From positions 1-50,455 of IMG/VR virus record IMGVR_UViG_3300035183_001457: DNA of 50,455 bases; one strand, written 5' to 3'. This document shows positions 1 through 50,455 of the stretch, piece after piece; position 1 is the stretch's first letter; each line of letters begins with the position of its first letter. Origin of the DNA: a virus. Made by a program: the position numbers and the translations under genes. Under the pieces are notes generated by a model. It searched no databases. It saw nothing but the letters and a program-made list of their open reading frames with translations, and had not been told where the DNA came from.

Positions 1-195
1 GGCCTGCGCGGACTCGTTCGCCTTCATGGCGACCTTCGTCAGGATCTGGTTGAGCTTGCCGCTCGCCGAGGCCGCCTCGATGTGCGGCAGCAGGATCTTC
101 TCGCGCGCCGCGTCGGCCTTGCGCCGGACCGCGTCATACTTCTCGACGACCTCCTCGATCGCCTCGTCAGCCACGCCCATCTCCTCGCCGAGCGC
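1..195. repeat. Terminal direct repeat, left copy (contig overlap)
   Basis: Bases 1-195 recur at 50261-50455 with one difference (G at 68, C at 50328). The vWA frame passes through both copies in phase, so this is most simply assembly overlap of a circular or permuted genome of about 50,260 bp. A true physical direct terminal repeat is the alternative. Confidence 0.95.
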
Positions 196-969
196 GCGCG
201 TGTCGTCGACCATCTCCGTCACGTCACGCGGGTCGTTGCGCGTGTCGGCGTCGTCCTTGAGCTTGTCGAGGCCGATCGCCGTGAACACCGCCTCGGAAAG
301 CTCCGAGGTGGCCTCGGCGGCGACCCGCCTGTGCATCGATGCCGCGCTGCGGATGGCGACCCACGCAGGCTGCGACTCGAGCACGCGCCGGAGCCGCGAG
401 CCAAACGCGGACGCCTCGTCGGCCGGAAGCTCCTCCGCTCCTGCCTCGTCGTACATCGAGGCGAAGGTCTCGCGCATGAACGGGATCGACTCGGAGAGCT
501 TCTTGAAGGCTCCGGTCCCGACGTCGCGGACCTTCTGGTCATCGTTCCACGAGGTGCGCCATGCGAGGCGCGACAGCGACGAGGGCGCGATCGTGAGGTC
601 GCGCCCAACGTCCGGTGAGGCGTCCTCCGATGCGCTGCGCTTCGCGGCGAGGCCGGCGCTCGCCAGCACGTTGCGAATCGCCGATGCGCCGACAGGCGCG
701 CCCTGCTTGCGCTTCTTGAGGTCGCCGACCTCGGCGATCTTCGCTCCCGAGAACGAGGCCGGCGTGACGACCTCGCTGATGCGGCCGCGCACCTTGTAGA
801 ATCGGCCGCCCTTGGAGCCGGAGGAAAGCTCGAGTGCCTCGACCTCGTAGCGCTTGCCGTCCGCTCGCAGGTGATCGGGAAACTGGACGTGGATGTCCTC
901 GAGGCCTTGCCCTTTCTGGGGGCGCACGCGGACGCGACGTCCATCGAGAGCACATTCGACGATCGGCAT
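1..969 (-). CDS. vWA domain protein, N-terminal 323 codons (gene split by the contig join)
   Basis: This is the open frame from ATG at 969 to the window edge. It has no stop here because the gene continues in phase at 50260..49376, for about 617 aa in total. The start follows a GGAGCAGGAGGAG ribosome-binding site in the same leader type as its neighbours. This part is a charged, largely helical region with no motif I recognise. The metal-binding vWA domain lies in the C-terminal part. It starts 27 nt after the stop of a MoxR/RavA-like AAA+ ATPase, the usual arrangement of AAA+/vWA partner pairs. Exact role unknown; remodelling of a protein complex during infection is inferred from the family. 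Confidence 0.85.
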   Translation of the reverse strand, partial: MPIVECALDGRRVRVRPQKGQGLEDIHVQFPDHLRADGKRYEVEALELSSGSKGGRFYKVRGRISEVVTPASFSGAKIAEVGDLKKRKQGAPVGASAIRNVLASAGLAAKRSASEDASPDVGRDLTIAPSSLSRLAWRTSWNDDQKVRDVGTGAFKKLSESIPFMRETFASMYDEAGAEELPADEASAFGSRLRRVLESQPAWVAIRSAASMHRRVAAEATSELSEAVFTAIGLDKLKDDADTRNDPRDVTEMVDDTRALGEEMGVADEAIEEVVEKYDAVRRKADAAREKILLPHIEAASASGKLNQILTKVAMKANESAQA

Positions 970-996: not shown

Positions 997-2232
997 TCAG
1001 CCGAGCCCGAGCAGCTGGCCGCACTCCTTGATGCGCGCGCGCAGCTTGTCGAGCTGAGCGACGGCGTCGTTGATCTCGGCCTCTGCGTCGGGAAACTGGT
1101 TCCGCGCCTCGTCGATGCTGCGGTTGATCTGCTTGACAGCCTTCATGACGTTGCCGAGCGTGACCAGCGCGTCGTCGCTGTTCGACGGCTTCTTCATGGC
1201 CTCCTCGATCTTCGCGTGCTCCTTCTCGATCGTGGAGCGCAGGTCGCGCACGATGCGCAACCAGCTCGCGACGTGCGCGCGAACCGCCTCGGTCACGTGC
1301 GGACGCTCCTCCGGCCTGTTCCACAACACGTCCTCGAGCGGAGAGAGGTGCGCGGAGGTCATGCGCCAGACGCCGTCCATGGCGCACCGCACGCGGAGCA
1401 GGTCGACGACCGCCTTCTCGACGCGTCGGTCGCTGACCTCGACGCCCTTCTCGCGGACCTGCGTGACGATCTTCCCGATGGCCTCGAGTGCGTCCTCGGT
1501 GATCTCCACCTTGAGCGCTGCCGCGGCGATGGCATCGAGGTCGGCAGCCGACACCTTGGGGATCTCGAAGTCGACGGCTCGCGCGCGCCTGCGGATCAGG
1601 TCCATCAGCGACGACACCTTGAGGCTCGTCACCGAGAGGCGGACGAGGAAGCGGTCGTGGAAGGCGCGCAGGCCGTCGTCGTCGTGAGGCAGCTCGTTCG
1701 AGGCCGCGACGAACATGCGCGTCGGGAGCCTCACGACCTCGTTCCCATTGAGAAACGTGCGCTCGTTCATCGCCTGCAGGAGCGTGTTGAGCGTGGCGCT
1801 CGAGCCCTTGAAAACCTCGTCGAGGAACACTACGTCGGCGGTTGGCAAGAAGCCTTCCGTCCTGCGCTTGAGGACGTCATGCTCCTGCATGGCGCGCAGG
1901 CTGATCGACCCGAAGATCTCGTCGGGCGACTGGTGCTTGTTGCAGAGCGTCTGGAAGAAGTGTCCTCCGGCCGCGCCCGCGATCGCGCGCAGCATCGCGC
2001 TCTTGGCGGTGCCGGGCGGACCGAGGACGAACACGTTGCCGCCGGCGATCCACGCGCCGAGCGTGGCGCGGATGGCGTGCTTGCGGTCGAGGAACCTCGC
2101 GGAGAGCGCCTCCTCGAGCTTCGCGATGCGCTCGCGCGCGGCGAGGAGAGCCTCGGTGTCGTTCTCGTGGTGCGCGGCGTACGTCGTCGCCGGCGCTGCC
2201 TCGGGCTGCTTCTTCTTTGCGGTGCTGGTCAT
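997..2232 (-). CDS. MoxR/RavA-type AAA+ ATPase
   Basis: A 411-aa AAA+ ATPase of the MoxR superfamily. Walker A GPPGTAKS is at residues 71-78 and Walker B VVFLDEV at about 134-140, followed by a sensor-1-like stretch ending AASNELP. In bacteria these ATPases pair with vWA proteins (RavA-ViaA, MoxR-CoxE types) as chaperones that assemble or activate complexes. Here the vWA partner follows directly. The frame is open further upstream, but ATG at 2232 is preferred because it follows AAGGAGCAGCCC and everything before it reads as low-complexity basic sequence. Assignment to the family is firm; the target is unknown. Confidence 0.93.
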   Translation of the reverse strand: MTSTAKKKQPEAAPATTYAAHHENDTEALLAARERIAKLEEALSARFLDRKHAIRATLGAWIAGGNVFVLGPPGTAKSAMLRAIAGAAGGHFFQTLCNKHQSPDEIFGSISLRAMQEHDVLKRRTEGFLPTADVVFLDEVFKGSSATLNTLLQAMNERTFLNGNEVVRLPTRMFVAASNELPHDDDGLRAFHDRFLVRLSVTSLKVSSLMDLIRRRARAVDFEIPKVSAADLDAIAAAALKVEITEDALEAIGKIVTQVREKGVEVSDRRVEKAVVDLLRVRCAMDGVWRMTSAHLSPLEDVLWNRPEERPHVTEAVRAHVASWLRIVRDLRSTIEKEHAKIEEAMKKPSNSDDALVTLGNVMKAVKQINRSIDEARNQFPDAEAEINDAVAQLDKLRARIKECGQLLGLG

Positions 2233-2243
2233 GGGCTGCTCCT

Positions 2244-2327
2244 TCAGGCCTTGCGGCGCTTCTTCGTGGTGCTGGTGGTGCGGGTCGAGCCGATGCTGGC
2301 CTCGAGGGCGCGCGCGGCGCGGGTCAC
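2244..2327 (-). CDS. Possible 27-aa basic peptide between companion gene and AAA+ gene
   Basis: GTG at 2327 overlaps the stop of the upstream gene by 4 nt (GTGA) and follows GGAGAGG by a few bases. The frame stops at 2244, where the ATPase ribosome-binding site begins. The product is strongly basic and ends TTKKRRKA. Precise fitting between two genes, coupling and a good SD argue for translation; its shortness argues for caution. It could instead be the old C-terminus of the upstream protein in a shifted frame. Confidence 0.4.
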   Translation of the reverse strand: MTRAARALEASIGSTRTTSTTKKRRKA

Positions 2328-3277
2328 CGCCCCTCTCCTTCGCGCGCGGCGTCGAGGAGCACGCCACGGACTTGCTTGATCGTGGCCTTGATGTCGGCGA
2401 GCCCCATCTCGAGGAAGCCTTCGAAGGCCGCTCCCTTGTCGAGGATCGCCTTGAGGTCCTCCATGCGGTCGAGGATCGTCTCCGCGCGGACCTTCTTGCC
2501 GGCGCGCACGTCGTCGAGGATCTCCTGAGCCTTGCGTCCGAGGTCGTCGCACTCGTCGAGCAGGCCGCGCTTGATCGCCGAGCCGAGCCGGCGGCCGCCG
2601 TCCTCGTAGACCTCGTTCGAGATCACGTCGACGCCGGCGAGGCGAAGCGGCTCGGCGAGGTCCTCGAGGCGCTCGTCGGGTCCGCGCAGCACCACGAAGG
2701 AGGAGGTGCCGCCGATCCGCACTCCACGGAGCCGCTTGAGGACGACGCCGTTGATCACCTCGCGCACGTCGCTCTGCGTGAGCTTCGAGCGCTCCTTCTC
2801 GTAGCGCTTGGCGACCCGCTCAAGCTCCTCGGCGACCGCGCGCGGCACCGAGGCCGCGCTCGTGCGGAGTCCGCCGGCGCCGTCCTTCGCGACCTCGATC
2901 GTGCATCGAGCGTCGCCGATCCACTCGCGCGCCTCGACGTCGGTGGTCTGCCGAATGAGCGCGTACACGAGGACGCCGGCCTTGTCGACGCCGACCTTGC
3001 GCCACATCCAGCTGGCTCCGCCGTCGTCCTTGACGCCCTTCTTCGCGTTGCCGATCGCTCGCGAGAGCGCCGTGTGCGCGGTCGAGACGCCGGGCACGAG
3101 GTCGCGCCACTCGGTCGGCGTCGCGTACATGAAGGCGCCGGGATCGACCCCGACGGGGGCGCCGCGCACCGGCACGCCGATCACGACATGCGTCGCCACG
3201 CGTCTCTCGTTGAGCGGCGCGCTGCGCGCGCGGAGGTCCGCCATGACCTTCTGCGCGTTCGTGTCGGGGGCGCTCAC
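2324..3277 (-). CDS. Uncharacterised companion of the AAA+/vWA pair
   Basis: A 317-aa soluble protein starting at GTG 3277, which overlaps the previous stop by GTGA. I do not recognise its family. The middle contains VVIGVPVRGAPVGVDPGAFMY and later a long charged helical region (about residues 140-180) and a helical C-terminus rich in Glu, Lys and Asp. There are no membrane segments or cysteine clusters. Its fixed place directly upstream of the ATPase suggests it is the substrate, adaptor or third partner of that module. This is inference from context only. Confidence 0.8.
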   Translation of the reverse strand: MSAPDTNAQKVMADLRARSAPLNERRVATHVVIGVPVRGAPVGVDPGAFMYATPTEWRDLVPGVSTAHTALSRAIGNAKKGVKDDGGASWMWRKVGVDKAGVLVYALIRQTTDVEAREWIGDARCTIEVAKDGAGGLRTSAASVPRAVAEELERVAKRYEKERSKLTQSDVREVINGVVLKRLRGVRIGGTSSFVVLRGPDERLEDLAEPLRLAGVDVISNEVYEDGGRRLGSAIKRGLLDECDDLGRKAQEILDDVRAGKKVRAETILDRMEDLKAILDKGAAFEGFLEMGLADIKATIKQVRGVLLDAAREGEGR

Positions 3278-3984
3278 GCTTCACCTCCGCCGTTCGACGC
3301 GGGCGCCTTCTTGAGCGCCTCCATCACGAGGACCTGCTCGCCGACCGCGAGGCGATCCGCGAGGGCGCGCAGGCCTTCGGCGCTCATGAGGACCGTGCGG
3401 ACCTTGTTGCCGACCTGCGTCCACGGAGTCGGGAGCGGCATCTGCACGCGCGGCAGCGTCTTGTCCTTGGTCTCGCCGAACACGGAGAAGGTCCCGGTGC
3501 GGTCGGCGTTCGCGCGCTTCCTCGTCGTGGGCTGCCCGTCGGCGTCGACGCCCGAGCCGAACTCGGTCGCGACCGCGGCGCGCACCGCGACCAAGAACTT
3601 CGTCGGGTCGCCGGCGCCGCGCCCTGCCTCCATGCGCCGGAGCACCGCGCGCGCGGTCGTCTCACCGAGCGCGGTGACCGCGGCGCCGAGAGAGGTCGCG
3701 AGCGCGTCGGTGCCGACGTTGTCCTCGTAGATCGAGAGGAGCCTCATGAAGGCCGCGTTCGGCGAGGTCTTCTTCTCGGGCGCATCGGCCTGCGCGGGCT
3801 GCGTCTCCGTCTCGGCCTGCGTGGGCGTGGGCATGGCGATCACCTCGGCCTCGACGTCCTTGCGGGCCTTCGAACGCGGCGCGCGTGTGCTCGACGTGGG
3901 CGCCGGCGGCGAGGTGTTGTCGACGTGGGCGGTGCCCTCGGTGGTCTGGATCTCGGTCTTGCGGTTCTTCTTTGTGGCGGTCAT
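3274..3984 (-). CDS. Hypothetical protein with disordered N-terminal half
   Basis: A 236-aa protein from ATG 3984, which follows the repeated AAGGAGCAGCCC leader. The frame upstream is open but low-complexity. Residues 1 to about 85 are Lys/Thr/Pro/Ala-rich with the look of a flexible tail. Residues from about 88 on form a folded helical domain (PNAAFMRLLSIYEDNVGTDA and onward) that includes a TRKRANADRTG stretch. No family recognised. It overlaps the next gene by 4 nt, so it probably works with, or is made together with, the AAA+/vWA module. Confidence 0.75.
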   Translation of the reverse strand: MTATKKNRKTEIQTTEGTAHVDNTSPPAPTSSTRAPRSKARKDVEAEVIAMPTPTQAETETQPAQADAPEKKTSPNAAFMRLLSIYEDNVGTDALATSLGAAVTALGETTARAVLRRMEAGRGAGDPTKFLVAVRAAVATEFGSGVDADGQPTTRKRANADRTGTFSVFGETKDKTLPRVQMPLPTPWTQVGNKVRTVLMSAEGLRALADRLAVGEQVLVMEALKKAPASNGGGEA

Positions 3985-4878: not shown

Positions 4879-6117
4879 TCAACCCGTGGTGCGCACCGGC
4901 TCGAGCCCGTGGGCGCCCGGCTCGCGCCCCACGCTGCGCGCGAAGACCGTCCACCGGCGCCGAATGACGTCGACGTACCGCGGCTCGAATTCCACGAGCC
5001 GCGCGCGCCGACCGCTCTGCGCAGCGGCGATCATGGTCGATCCCGATCCACCGAACACGTCGAGGACAATCTCTCCCGGCCTCGAGCTATTGACGACGTG
5101 GCGCTCGATCAATTCGGGCGGCTTCATGGTCGGATGATCCGGCGATCGCATCGGCCTGTCGACGTCATGCACCGAGGTCTGCGTGCGGTCGTCGACGAAG
5201 AAGTGCGCGGCGCCCGGCTTCCATCCGTAGAAGATCGGCTCGTGGATGTAGTGGTAATCGCTGCGCCCGAGGACCATCTGGTTCTTGCGCCACACGAGGA
5301 CCTGCCGGTAGAGGCCGCGCGCGCGAAGCACGAGGCCGAAGTCGACGAAGTTCTCGCCTTGCGGCGCGGCCACGTAGCAGGCGCCGCCCGGCTTCAGGAA
5401 CGGCAGCGCCGAGTCGAACGCGTCCTCGAGGAACGCGCGCAGGTCCTCGGCGGTCAGATCGTCGTTCGCGATGGCCGCGCGCGGCTTGGCGATGCCTCCC
5501 TTGTACGCGATCCCGTAAGGCGGGTCGGTCCAGATCATGTCGGCGACCGCACCGTCGTCGAACAGGCGCGCGAGCGTCTCCGGCTTCGTGGAGTCGCCGC
5601 AGATCACGCGGTGCTCTCCAAGCTCGTAGACCTCGCCGGGCACGCTCACGGCGTCGTCGAGGACCGGCGGCACCTCGTCCTCGCCGCGCTGCGGAGGCTG
5701 CGCGAGCGCGGAGATGGCGTCGGCGAATGCCTGCTGGTCGTAGCCGGTGCCGGCGAGCCCCTGCGTCGTGGTGGCGACCGCGGTCAGGATCTCGGCGAGC
5801 CGATGCTCGTCGTTCACGGCGAGGTCGCTCGCGCGGTTGTCGGAGAGCAGGATGCGCATGGCGTGGTCGTCGTCGACGTCGACGATCATGGCCGGGACCT
5901 TCACGTACCCGAGCGCGCGCGCGGCCTGCAGTCGATGGTTCCCGACGAGCACGTGCCTCGTTGAACGCTGAATGACGAGGACGCCGTGCCATCCGTTGAT
6001 CCGAATGAGGTCCGTGATGGCGGCGACGTCGCCTTTGCGTGGGTTCTGCGGATGCAGCACAGGCCATCCGACGTCGACGTCGACAACAGGAGCGATCGGG
6101 TGAGCGGTTTCGTTCAT
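4879..6117 (-). CDS. ParB-domain / DNA methyltransferase fusion
   Basis: A 412-aa protein from ATG 6117 (SD GAAGGGA). Residues about 10-110 are a ParB/sulfiredoxin-like domain with LVGNHRLQAARALG. Residues about 160-400 are an N4/N6 amino-methyltransferase, with DPPY at 198-201 and the SAM-binding FGGSG at 355-359, which gives the beta-class motif order. Such fusions are common in phages and modify phage DNA against host restriction. The ParB part may serve DNA binding. The frame is open well upstream of 6117, but that sequence contains G-runs and hairpins and does not look coding. It ends about 100 nt before a strong terminator. Confidence 0.93.
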   Translation of the reverse strand: MNETAHPIAPVVDVDVGWPVLHPQNPRKGDVAAITDLIRINGWHGVLVIQRSTRHVLVGNHRLQAARALGYVKVPAMIVDVDDDHAMRILLSDNRASDLAVNDEHRLAEILTAVATTTQGLAGTGYDQQAFADAISALAQPPQRGEDEVPPVLDDAVSVPGEVYELGEHRVICGDSTKPETLARLFDDGAVADMIWTDPPYGIAYKGGIAKPRAAIANDDLTAEDLRAFLEDAFDSALPFLKPGGACYVAAPQGENFVDFGLVLRARGLYRQVLVWRKNQMVLGRSDYHYIHEPIFYGWKPGAAHFFVDDRTQTSVHDVDRPMRSPDHPTMKPPELIERHVVNSSRPGEIVLDVFGGSGSTMIAAAQSGRRARLVEFEPRYVDVIRRRWTVFARSVGREPGAHGLEPVRTTG

Positions 6118-6492
6118 GTGATCCCTTCCAAGAACGCCACGGTGGCGGTAGAACGCTTCTGGGTGCGCGGACGCCCCCGCCCATGGAGGGAGGGAGGCCA
6201 TCGGTGGGGAAACCCACCGACGCACCGATCGGCGCCGCGGTGTCGCCGATCGGTGGAGAAGCCGGGGACGCATCCCTCGACGGTGAAGCCGGGCGCGCCG
6301 GTGGAGATCGTCGACGAGAGCCGCCACACAGACAACCGCCGCTCTCCATGGGGGGGGTTGGGGGGGGCGTTCGAAGTGTCGACGACGATCGTGTCGTGAT
6401 CGAGCCGGTGACGACGACAACAAGATCGGACACCACATGCCGCGCCGGTCTGCCGGCGCGAAACGCGGGTCGGGGCAAGCCGGCGCGCGGCG
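6118..6492. other. 375-bp non-coding region with hairpins and G-runs
   Basis: No convincing gene. It holds an 8-bp inverted repeat (TCGGTGGG 6201-6208 / CCCACCGA 6213-6220), then a 12-bp perfect one (CACCGATCGGCG 6223-6234 / CGCCGATCGGTG 6244-6255), and runs of 8-9 G near 6352-6370 plus GGGAGGGAGG near 6187. The TCGGTGG core recurs several times. Confidence 0.6.
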
Positions 6493-13782: not shown

Positions 13783-13873
13783 GGCTCCCTCGATCGGCGA
13801 TTGGCGAACGCCCGCAGCCCCACGGCTGCGACCCTCTCGAGGGTTGAGTGGTTCAAATCCACCGGGGAGCCAC
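13783..13873 (+). tRNA. tRNA-like cloverleaf, non-canonical
   Basis: GGCTCCC (13783-13789) pairs perfectly with GGGAGCC (13865-13871), followed by A. In between, in tRNA order: a D-like arm GGCG/CGCC with loop ATTGGCGAA; a 6-bp stem CGCAGC/GCTGCG with a 6-nt loop; a variable arm CCCT/AGGG; and a T-arm GTGG-TTCAAAT-CCAC with a consensus T-loop. The 6-nt linker after the acceptor and the 6-nt anticodon loop are abnormal, so no anticodon is assigned. It could be a degenerate class II tRNA, a tRNA mimic or a remnant. A separate hairpin GCGCTG/CAGCGC with a CTTGAAA loop precedes it (13752-13774). Confidence 0.45.
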
Positions 13874-49202: not shown

Positions 49203-49379
49203 TCACCGCGCGAGCACGATCAGCGGGTTGCCGCGGACCACGTCCCATGTGCGGCGCCCGTCCTCCTCGTCGCACGGTGAGGCGCGCGCCTTCGCCGCGG
49301 CGAGGCGCTCCTTGTTCCAGCAGCCGTCGCCGGCCTTCGCGAAGCACCTCTGGCAGTCGATCTTCTCCGGGTCGATCAC
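49203..49379 (-). CDS. Small Zn-finger-like protein, 58 aa
   Basis: GTG 49379 overlaps the vWA stop by 4 nt (GTGA) and follows GAGGTGAAG. Four cysteines (C9, C12, C20, C36) fit a small zinc site. The end is beta-like (GNPLIVLAR). Coupling, SD and codon bias support a real gene. It may assist the AAA+/vWA module, since it is co-translated with it. Confidence 0.7.
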   Translation of the reverse strand: MIDPEKIDCQRCFAKAGDGCWNKERLAAAKARASPCDEEDGRRTWDVVRGNPLIVLAR

Positions 49380-50455
49380 GGCTTCACCTCGTGGCCCATC
49401 ATCTGCCGCAGCGCGTTCCCTGCGGTGACGTCGTTCGACTTCTCGCCCATACTCGACGAGAGGTGGAAGGTCGCGGTGAACTCCGGGTGACGCTCGCCGG
49501 CGTTCGGCATGTCGATCGCGACCTGAAAGAGGCGGCCACCTCGAGGCAGCACCTTCTCAAGCTGCTGCTTCGTGAGCGGGTCGAATGCTCCGTCCGTGGC
49601 GATCGAGAAGTCGCTGCACTTCTCGAGGAGCGCGTGCTTCTTGAGCGACGCGTGCGCCTCGTTGAGTGCGACAGGCACGTTTGTTCCGCCTCCCGCTCCG
49701 ATGCTCACGCACGCGATCGCGCGCGCCAGCGTGGCCGTGTTGCCGGGGATCATGACCTCGGCCTTCGCGCTGTCGTCGAAGGACACCGCGACGCACACGC
49801 GGCGCTCCTTGTAGCAGGCCACGAGGGTCGCCACCGAGAAGCCTCGGCAAAGCTGCTCGCGCCTGCCTGCCATCGACCCGGAGCGGTCGGCGAGGAGGAC
49901 CATCGGACCTCGTCGACGGTGGTCCTCGCCGCGCTGTTCGAAGCTCTGGGCCTGCCGCTGAAGAAGCTCCGCCTGCGCCACGGACCGGAGCGGCGTCGAC
50001 GAGGCGATGCGGGTGCGGAACATGGGCGTCGTCCTCGACAGGTCGTCGCTCGGCACGATCCCCACGACGTCGCAGCGCCCGTTTGCCAGCGTGGTCTTGC
50101 CGCCCGATGAGTGCTCCTCGAGCATGCGCCCGGCCTTGCGCAGGATCTCTCGGAAGGTCGGGTTCTTGAGCACCTCGGCGATCAGCTCCTCGGGCACGTC
50201 GACCTGCTGCCCGGATCCTCCGCCCGTCGGCGAGAAGCCGAGCGAGGTGAGGAGACTGATGGCCTGCGCGGACTCGTTCGCCTTCATGGCGACCTTCGTC
50301 AGGATCTGGTTGAGCTTGCCGCTCGCCCAGGCCGCCTCGATGTGCGGCAGCAGGATCTTCTCGCGCGCCGCGTCGGCCTTGCGCCGGACCGCGTCATACT
50401 TCTCGACGACCTCCTCGATCGCCTCGTCAGCCACGCCCATCTCCTCGCCGAGCGC
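49376..50455 (-). CDS. vWA domain protein, C-terminal part (gene split by the contig join)
   Basis: Continues from 1 across the join (full gene 969..1 then 50260..49376). In the full protein D448-S450-S452 (ADRSGSM), T516 (GGGTN) and D546 (ATDG) complete a metal-ion-dependent adhesion site, so the vWA fold should bind Mg2+/Mn2+ and a partner ligand. vWA proteins of this arrangement act with MoxR/RavA ATPases. The segment 50440-49376 alone would encode 354 aa from an internal ATG, but that start is an artefact of the contig edge. Confidence 0.9.
   Translation of the reverse strand, partial: ALGEEMGVADEAIEEVVEKYDAVRRKADAAREKILLPHIEAAWASGKLNQILTKVAMKANESAQAISLLTSLGFSPTGGGSGQQVDVPEELIAEVLKNPTFREILRKAGRMLEEHSSGGKTTLANGRCDVVGIVPSDDLSRTTPMFRTRIASSTPLRSVAQAELLQRQAQSFEQRGEDHRRRGPMVLLADRSGSMAGRREQLCRGFSVATLVACYKERRVCVAVSFDDSAKAEVMIPGNTATLARAIACVSIGAGGGTNVPVALNEAHASLKKHALLEKCSDFSIATDGAFDPLTKQQLEKVLPRGGRLFQVAIDMPNAGERHPEFTATFHLSSSMGEKSNDVTAGNALRQMMGHEVKP
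50261..50455. repeat. Terminal direct repeat, right copy (contig overlap)
   Basis: Second copy of the 195-bp repeat at bases 1-195. The single mismatch changes a TCG (Ser) codon in the left copy to TGG (Trp) here within the vWA gene. That is either a real variant in the population or a contig-end error. Confidence 0.95.

What the first reader, a model, noticed from the sequence alone, without database searches (positions are those of the whole stretch)
997..3277. Phage-encoded MoxR/vWA chaperone module with an unassigned third gene
A RavA-type ATPase, a full-MIDAS vWA protein and an unassigned 317-aa companion lie in one coupled block in the early operon of a siphovirus, followed by a small Zn-finger gene. 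In cells such pairs remodel complexes. In a phage they could alter a host machine, such as a defence complex, RNA polymerase or the envelope, or mature a replication or virion complex. The target is unknown.
Basis: partly seen in the sequence, partly recalled or inferred. Interest (0 to 1): 0.8.

Follow-up and report, generated by a model that had tools for sequence, protein, structure and literature searches.

The report
Mobile three-gene ATPase remodelling cassette
Three neighbouring phage genes (a RavA-like motor ATPase, its ViaA-like partner, and a third protein now recognised as a divergent member of the uncharacterised DUF6744 family) form a cassette that recurs in many unrelated phages and also on bacterial plasmids, which points to a shared but still unknown protein-remodelling job for mobile DNA.

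Summary
The ATPase (2232-997) is RavA-like. The vWA protein is real but lies outside the stated range: it spans the ends of this terminally redundant contig (969-1 plus 50260-49376; 617 aa, full MIDAS) and is ViaA-like. The 'unassigned' 317-aa companion (3277-2324) is a divergent member of Pfam DUF6744: a profile built without it finds it at 7e-18, although Pfam's own model misses it. The three genes are a conserved unit. Of 43 loci (IMG/VR and GenBank phage contigs, window included) with ATPase and vWA, 34 also carry DUF6744, always on the same strand, in several gene orders; no other gene family recurs in more than 4 loci. Scans anchored on DUF6744 give the same result. Fifteen plasmids of Nocardia, Streptomyces, Rubrobacter, Brevibacillus and Alicyclobacillus carry DUF6744; all 12 that I read have the complete triad. 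The two related phages that I compared with the window share essentially only these genes with it. Most likely this is a mobile, self-contained RavA-ViaA-type remodelling machine in which DUF6744 is the targeting or client subunit, probably acting on DNA-bound complexes. The target is unknown. Plasmid carriage argues against a dedicated virion-assembly role. DUF6744 appears in no paper of the held library.

The parts
2324..3277 (-). Companion (component D), 317 aa, divergent DUF6744 protein: N-terminal helices, four-stranded sheet (residues 89-141), helix-helix-hairpin segment (146-195), long C-terminal helices
   Evidence: Profile of 30 relatives without it hits at 7.1e-18, hhalign probability 97.7%; relatives L011 and L021 match PF20529 at 1.9e-19 and 3.6e-26; AlphaFold2 mean pLDDT 82
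997..2232 (-). RavA-like MoxR AAA+ ATPase (component A), 411 aa, without the RavA LARA and C-terminal domains
   Evidence: PF20030 2.7e-51, AAA_lid_8 4e-8; phrog_19600 4.5e-62; PDB RavA 9e-44 over residues 33-308; NCBIfam RavA 3.4e-53
1..969 (-). vWA protein (component V), 5' part (residues 1-323; codons at 195-1 are repeated at the other end of the contig)
   Evidence: Open frame continuing in register into 50260-49376; homology runs across the junction
49376..50260 (-). vWA protein (component V), 3' part with complete MIDAS (DRSGS, GGGTN, TDG); ViaA-like
   Evidence: phrog_24053 2.5e-15; ViaA NF008230 1.7e-8 for this part; relative in Moorella phage matches ViaA at 3.6e-27
50261..50455 (.). 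Terminal direct repeat of 1-195 (194/195 identical) showing that the contig closes on itself inside the vWA gene
49203..49379 (-). Small 58-codon ORF with CxxC (possible zinc finger), start overlapping the vWA stop codon; membership in the module not shown
3274..3981 (-). Upstream 235-aa gene coupled to D by a 4-nt overlap; no relative near the module in other loci, so probably not part of the module

Best explanation
The three genes encode one ATP-driven protein-remodelling machine of the RavA-ViaA (MoxR/vWA) type that mobile elements carry as a self-contained cassette. The ATPase is expected to form a hexameric ring, and the vWA protein to dock on it and reach the client through its MIDAS domain (inferred from RavA-ViaA and NorQ-NorD). 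The DUF6744 protein replaces the substrate-recruiting part that RavA carries in cis (LARA, missing here): it is the dedicated targeting subunit or client and brings the ring to DNA-bound complexes, which the machine then disassembles or matures early in infection or plasmid establishment. Shown: the gene triad, its homologies, its conservation and exchange as a unit in phages and plasmids, and intact catalytic and MIDAS motifs. Inferred: complex formation, DUF6744 as targeting subunit, and DNA-bound targets.
For: Triad conservation: 34 of 43 A+V loci have D, same strand, orders D-A-V, A-D-V and A-V-D. Whole records of up to 210 kb carry D only with A/V. Nine new DUF6744-anchored contigs: 6 with all three, 2 cut by the contig end, 1 without. 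Plasmids: 15 with D, 12 read, 12 with A+V adjacent. No other family in more than 4 of 47 loci; records G007 and G005 share only the triad (plus a 25%-identical methyltransferase) with the window phage. Distances covary: D-A 0.60, D-V 0.57, A-V 0.69, shuffled maximum 0.24. RavA and ViaA homology; LARA absent. DNA link: SAP domain fused to D in L017 (4.7e-10, over cut-off), weak winged-helix in L020, Lys/Arg-rich D tails in L021 and L032, neighbours that include helicases, exonucleases, primases and methyltransferases. Mechanism of MoxR/vWA pairs: PMC9976466 (NorQ hexamer with the NorD vWA plugging the pore).
Against: No physical interaction was tested. The DNA-binding add-ons occur in a minority of D proteins, and the window D has none. 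The neighbourhood bias was not compared with a background rate and may only mean that the cassette sits among early genes. Correlated distances also arise from joint inheritance. Nine A+V loci lack D, so the pair may work with other partners. The cassette sits alone among unrelated genes on Streptomyces plasmids.
Confidence: 0.5

Rival explanations
1. Virion-assembly chaperone: the machine matures tail or head proteins, as proposed for ATV p618/p892 and for group 2.2 jumbo phages.
For: Viral MoxR-vWA pairs are described as tail-development or assembly chaperones (PMC4124505, PMC7824862); archaeal p618/SMV1 ATPases are distant relatives.
Against: The same triad sits on mobilizable plasmids next to type IV secretion genes, without virions, and on Streptomyces plasmids. 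In the window it lies on the replication/recombination strand, away from the structural genes. No DUF6744 is next to the pair in the SMV1 locus read.
Confidence: 0.1
2. Counter-defence or host-takeover machine: it dismantles DNA-bound host defence or host transcription/replication complexes, which would profit phages and plasmids alike.
For: Carriage by both phages and plasmids, exchange as a unit, early-region location, no constant functional neighbour.
Against: No known anti-defence protein is nearby and there is no direct evidence; the same pattern fits a role in the element's own replication.
Confidence: 0.3
3. Defence (conflict) system: a fifth kind of MoxR-vWA ternary system in the sense of Kaur et al. 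2020, guarding the element's host against competing elements.
For: Same three-part grammar (MoxR + vWA + one distinctive third protein); the ATPase falls in the Pfam family named after such systems; three contigs have a retron-type reverse transcriptase beside the pair and no D.
Against: No effector domain, peptidase, DGR or STAND component seen; no real PADLOC match; Pfam bpMoxR is a broad domain that does not by itself mark a conflict system; sits in a replication operon in the window.
Confidence: 0.15
4. Cobaltochelatase-like CobST pair boosting cobalamin synthesis, as suggested for archaeal tailed viruses.
For: CobS/CobT are also an AAA+/vWA-MIDAS pair widespread in tailed viruses (PMC8651126); weak match of V to a cobaltochelatase model.
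Against: The ATPase matches RavA-like phrog_19600 at 4.5e-62 and the porphyrin-biosynthesis phrog_249 only at 0.004; V relatives match ViaA over about 300 residues; no CobN seen near the module and no metallopeptidase domain.
Confidence: 0.02
5. Accidental neighbours or hitchhiking genes without a joint function.
For: Gene order varies between loci.
Against: Linkage is kept through changes of order and across unrelated phages and plasmids while all other neighbours change.
Confidence: 0.02

Closest known systems
RavA-ViaA (E. coli and relatives)
   Same: ATPase AAA+ core and lid are RavA-like (PDB 3nbx 9e-44, NCBIfam RavA 3.4e-53); vWA relatives match ViaA beyond the vWA domain
   Different: No LARA or RavA C-terminal domain; scores far below the RavA and ViaA equivalog cut-offs; an extra DUF6744 gene; carried by mobile elements
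MoxR-vWA ternary conflict systems (VMAP, iSTAND, FtsH, beta-propeller; Kaur et al. 2020, PMC7159879)
   Same: Chaperone-cochaperone pair plus one distinctive third component in one operon
   Different: Third component is DUF6744, not among the four described; no effector, peptidase or DGR modules found
Viral MoxR-vWA pairs: ATV p618/p892, SMV1 ORF588, Bacillus phage 0305phi8-36 orf66/63, halovirus Hardycor1, phage CL131
   Same: Virus-encoded AAA+ ATPase next to a vWA-MIDAS protein (PMC4124505, PMC2147016, PMC7911831)
   Different: No DUF6744 partner in SMV1 or CL131; ATV p618 and SMV1 ATPases are distant; ATV p618 is a virion protein
NorQ-NorD (PMC9976466; PDB 9qhd)
   Same: Best mechanistic model of a MoxR/vWA machine; the NorD vWA fold is among the hits of the V model
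   Different: Dedicated to nitric oxide reductase maturation; no DUF6744
Plasmid and ICE MoxR/vWA cassette (pCAR1 ORF100-103, R478, Rts1, SXT, R391; PMC2642839)
   Same: MoxR and vWA genes conserved as a cassette on conjugative elements
   Different: CbbQ-domain ATPase with other partner genes; relation to DUF6744 not tested

Membership tests
RavA (MoxR family ATPase) | AAA+ MoxR core with Walker A/B, sensors and Arg finger, RavA-like sequence | tested here: met
RavA (MoxR family ATPase) | LARA domain and RavA C-terminal domain; score over the RavA equivalog cut-off (681 bits) | tested here: not met
   No such Pfam match; 181 bits. It is RavA-like, not RavA
ViaA (vWA partner of RavA) | Helical N half plus C-terminal vWA with full MIDAS | tested here: met
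   MIDAS in the window protein; model of the relative L011; ViaA profile match of relatives
ViaA (vWA partner of RavA) | Score over the ViaA equivalog cut-off (500 bits) | tested here: not met
   34 bits for the window part, 96 bits for the Moorella relative
DUF6744 (PF20529) | Match to the Pfam model over its cut-off (27 bits) | tested here: not met
   No match for the window protein
DUF6744 (PF20529) | Homology to accepted members over most of the domain | tested here: met
   Family profile without the window protein hits residues 62-305 at 7.1e-18; hhalign 97.7%; accepted members L011, L021, L002
MoxR-vWA ternary conflict system (Kaur et al. 2020) | MoxR + vWA + third conserved component in one operon | tested here: met
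MoxR-vWA ternary conflict system (Kaur et al. 2020) | Third component VMAP, iSTAND, FtsH or vWA-fused beta-propeller, with effector modules | tested here: not met
   DUF6744 instead; no effector domains or PADLOC matches
Cobaltochelatase CobS/CobT | CobS-type ATPase | tested here: not met
   phrog_249 only 0.004, against phrog_19600 4.5e-62
RavA-ViaA-type remodelling machine (works like) | Physical A-V (and D) complex, ATP-dependent remodelling of a client | not testable with these tools
   Complex modelling and biochemistry were not available

The most novel reading that the evidence does not exclude
A widespread, autonomous three-protein motor shared by phages and conjugative plasmids that strips or remodels DNA-bound host complexes (defence or replication roadblocks), with DUF6744 as a swappable targeting subunit that may be replaced by a retron-type reverse transcriptase in some phages.
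Probability: 0.2. Interest if true: 0.85.

Novelty: new variant of a known kind. Interest (0 to 1): 0.62.

Why it matters
Phage MoxR/vWA genes are usually noted one at a time and explained by virion assembly or cobalamin. Here a fixed third partner is identified, the same triad is found on plasmids, and it travels as a unit. This gives an uncharacterised protein family (DUF6744) a context and turns an annotation curiosity into a testable multi-protein machine of mobile DNA. The plasmid copies allow genetics without a phage.

Tried and rejected
Single-protein scans of viral contigs with the companion or the ATPase found no relative: too divergent. Pfam and PHROGs gave no family for the companion; only profile methods did. 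Two genome-contig scans with DUF6744 alignments found nothing, so the chromosomal distribution is unknown; the genome search draws no relatives for a virus record. Foldseek of the companion model against PDB gave no match at E <= 0.001; CorA and kinetochore hits were judged meaningless. Against BFVD, only three uncharacterised phage proteins. PADLOC gave only weak coiled-coil or P-loop noise. A constant replication partner (DnaB, SSB, Sak4, RecE) was looked for and not found near the triad elsewhere; beta clamp (dnaN) neighbours occur only in three plasmids and CL131. The Salmonella, Escherichia and faecal 'phage' records hit look like bacterial chromosomal RavA (inference from record type and size) and were not used as evidence for the triad. 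The CobST reading was rejected on family scores.

Full report
What is there. The window is a 50,455-base virus record whose two ends repeat each other over 195 bases (1-195 and 50261-50455, one mismatch). On the minus strand, in the direction of transcription, lie a ParB/methyltransferase gene, small genes, a 235-aa gene (3981-3274), the companion (3277-2324), the ATPase (2232-997), the vWA gene (969-1 continuing at 50260-49376), a 58-codon ORF with CxxC (49379-49203), and then genes for a RecE/YqaJ exonuclease, a Sak4-like protein, SSB and DnaB. The structural genes (terminase, tail) are on the plus strand. A vWA profile built without the window matches residues 122-559 continuously across that junction (5e-49).

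ATPase and vWA. The ATPase is RavA-like: bpMoxR 2.7e-51 and AAA_lid_8, phrog_19600 4.5e-62, E. coli RavA structure 9e-44 over the AAA+ part, NCBIfam RavA 3.4e-53. The P-loop, Walker B, sensor and Arg-finger residues are invariant among the five phage-collection sequences aligned. The RavA-specific LARA and C-terminal domains are absent, and the score is well below the equivalog cut-off, so it is RavA-like, not RavA. The vWA protein carries DxSxS, T and D of a full MIDAS. Its family matches ViaA over about 300 residues (Moorella relative 3.6e-27), and the model of a relative has a helical N half followed by a vWA domain. PDB neighbours include NorD of the NorQD complex.

The third gene. Pfam finds nothing significant in the 317-aa companion. 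A profile made from 30 relatives, from which the companion and its closest relative were left out, matches it at 7.1e-18 (search space set to Pfam's size), and hhalign gives 97.7% probability over 232 columns. Those relatives include clear PF20529/DUF6744 members (Moorella phage CDS0119 5.6e-61; L011 1.9e-19 and L021 3.6e-26). AlphaFold2 gives a usable model (mean pLDDT 82) with no PDB fold match. In other phages the DUF6744 protein carries C-terminal additions: a SAP domain in L017 (4.7e-10, above Pfam's cut-off), a sub-threshold winged-helix in L020 and Lys/Arg-rich tails in L021 and L032. Several of these are typical of DNA-binding proteins. No DUF6744 paper is in the held library.

Is it a unit? 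Together with GenBank phage records and the window, 43 loci have ATPase and vWA and 34 of them have DUF6744, always on the same strand, in the orders D-A-V, A-D-V and A-V-D. L030 and L033 are near-duplicates. In whole records DUF6744 occurs only close to the pair. Clustering of all neighbouring ORFs shows no other family in more than 4 loci. Scans started from DUF6744 gave nine contigs not seen before: six with all three genes, two cut by the contig end, one without; two of the six are near-duplicates of L014. Two related records, G007 (L013) and G005 (L011), share with the window phage only D, A and V, apart from a 25%-identical methyltransferase. Pairwise distances of the three proteins correlate (0.57-0.69 against a shuffled maximum of 0.24), which shows joint inheritance but does not by itself prove contact.

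Plasmids. DUF6744 is on 15 plasmids of Nocardia, Streptomyces, Rubrobacter, Brevibacillus and Alicyclobacillus. All twelve that I opened have the ATPase and vWA genes adjacent, confirmed with the phage-derived profiles. The Nocardia copies lie next to type IV secretion genes on MOBP plasmids; the Streptomyces copies stand alone among unrelated genes. This takes the module out of the strictly phage-specific category and weakens the virion-assembly reading offered for other viral MoxR/vWA pairs (PMC4124505, PMC7824862).

How it probably works. By analogy with RavA-ViaA and NorQ-NorD (PMC9976466), the ATPase ring with the vWA protein in its pore exerts force on a client. RavA recruits a client through its own LARA domain (established knowledge of that family); here that domain is missing and a separate, conserved protein is usually on hand. 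I therefore propose that DUF6744 is the targeting subunit or the client. The SAP and winged-helix additions and the company of helicases, nucleases, primases and methyltransferases suggest that the client sits on DNA. Whether that is the element's own replication/recombination complex or a host complex, defence included, is open. The gene set, its homologies, its conservation and its exchange are shown; complex formation, the role of DUF6744 and the DNA-bound client are inferred.

Known or new. The kind is known (MoxR/vWA remodelling machines; ternary MoxR-vWA systems, PMC7159879). The third component, the phage-plasmid distribution and the cassette behaviour were not found in the papers searched. 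Kaur et al. list VMAP, iSTAND, FtsH and beta-propeller third components, not this one. I rate it a new variant of a known kind.

Limits.

Noticed in passing
L040:4722-8260, L015:5986-9760, L039:5989-10890: In three contigs without DUF6744 the MoxR-vWA pair is followed by a retron-type reverse transcriptase (best PDB match Retron-Kva2 RT, 3.6e-31; vWA and RT overlap by 4 nt in L040) and later a CxxxCxxC radical-SAM-like protein: a possible swap of the third component.
   Followed up: partly
L078:6712-7893, L079:6702-7883, L069:2381-3520, L003:4376-5785: A beta sliding clamp gene (dnaN) lies next to or near the ATPase-vWA genes on three plasmids and in cyanophage CL131.
   Followed up: partly
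L003:758-1600: Phage CL131 has, in the position of DUF6744, a protein with a polyvalent-protein-associated domain (LPD29, 6.8e-22).
   Followed up: no
window 1-195 and 50261-50455: 195-bp terminal direct repeat with one mismatch; the contig ends interrupt the vWA gene, so per-contig annotation would miss or split it.
   Followed up: yes
window 4879-6264 (-): ParB-N domain fused to an N6/N4 DNA methyltransferase (phrog_498 8e-104) at the head of the same minus-strand block.
   Followed up: no
window 13786-13871 (+): ARAGORN reports a tRNA with a two-base anticodon that overlaps the start of a coding ORF; probably spurious.
   Followed up: no
phage records OR845595, OR850905, AFYI01000003, AGRM01000003: RavA-like genes in records listed as Escherichia/Salmonella phages look like host chromosomal sequence in a phage collection.
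   Followed up: no
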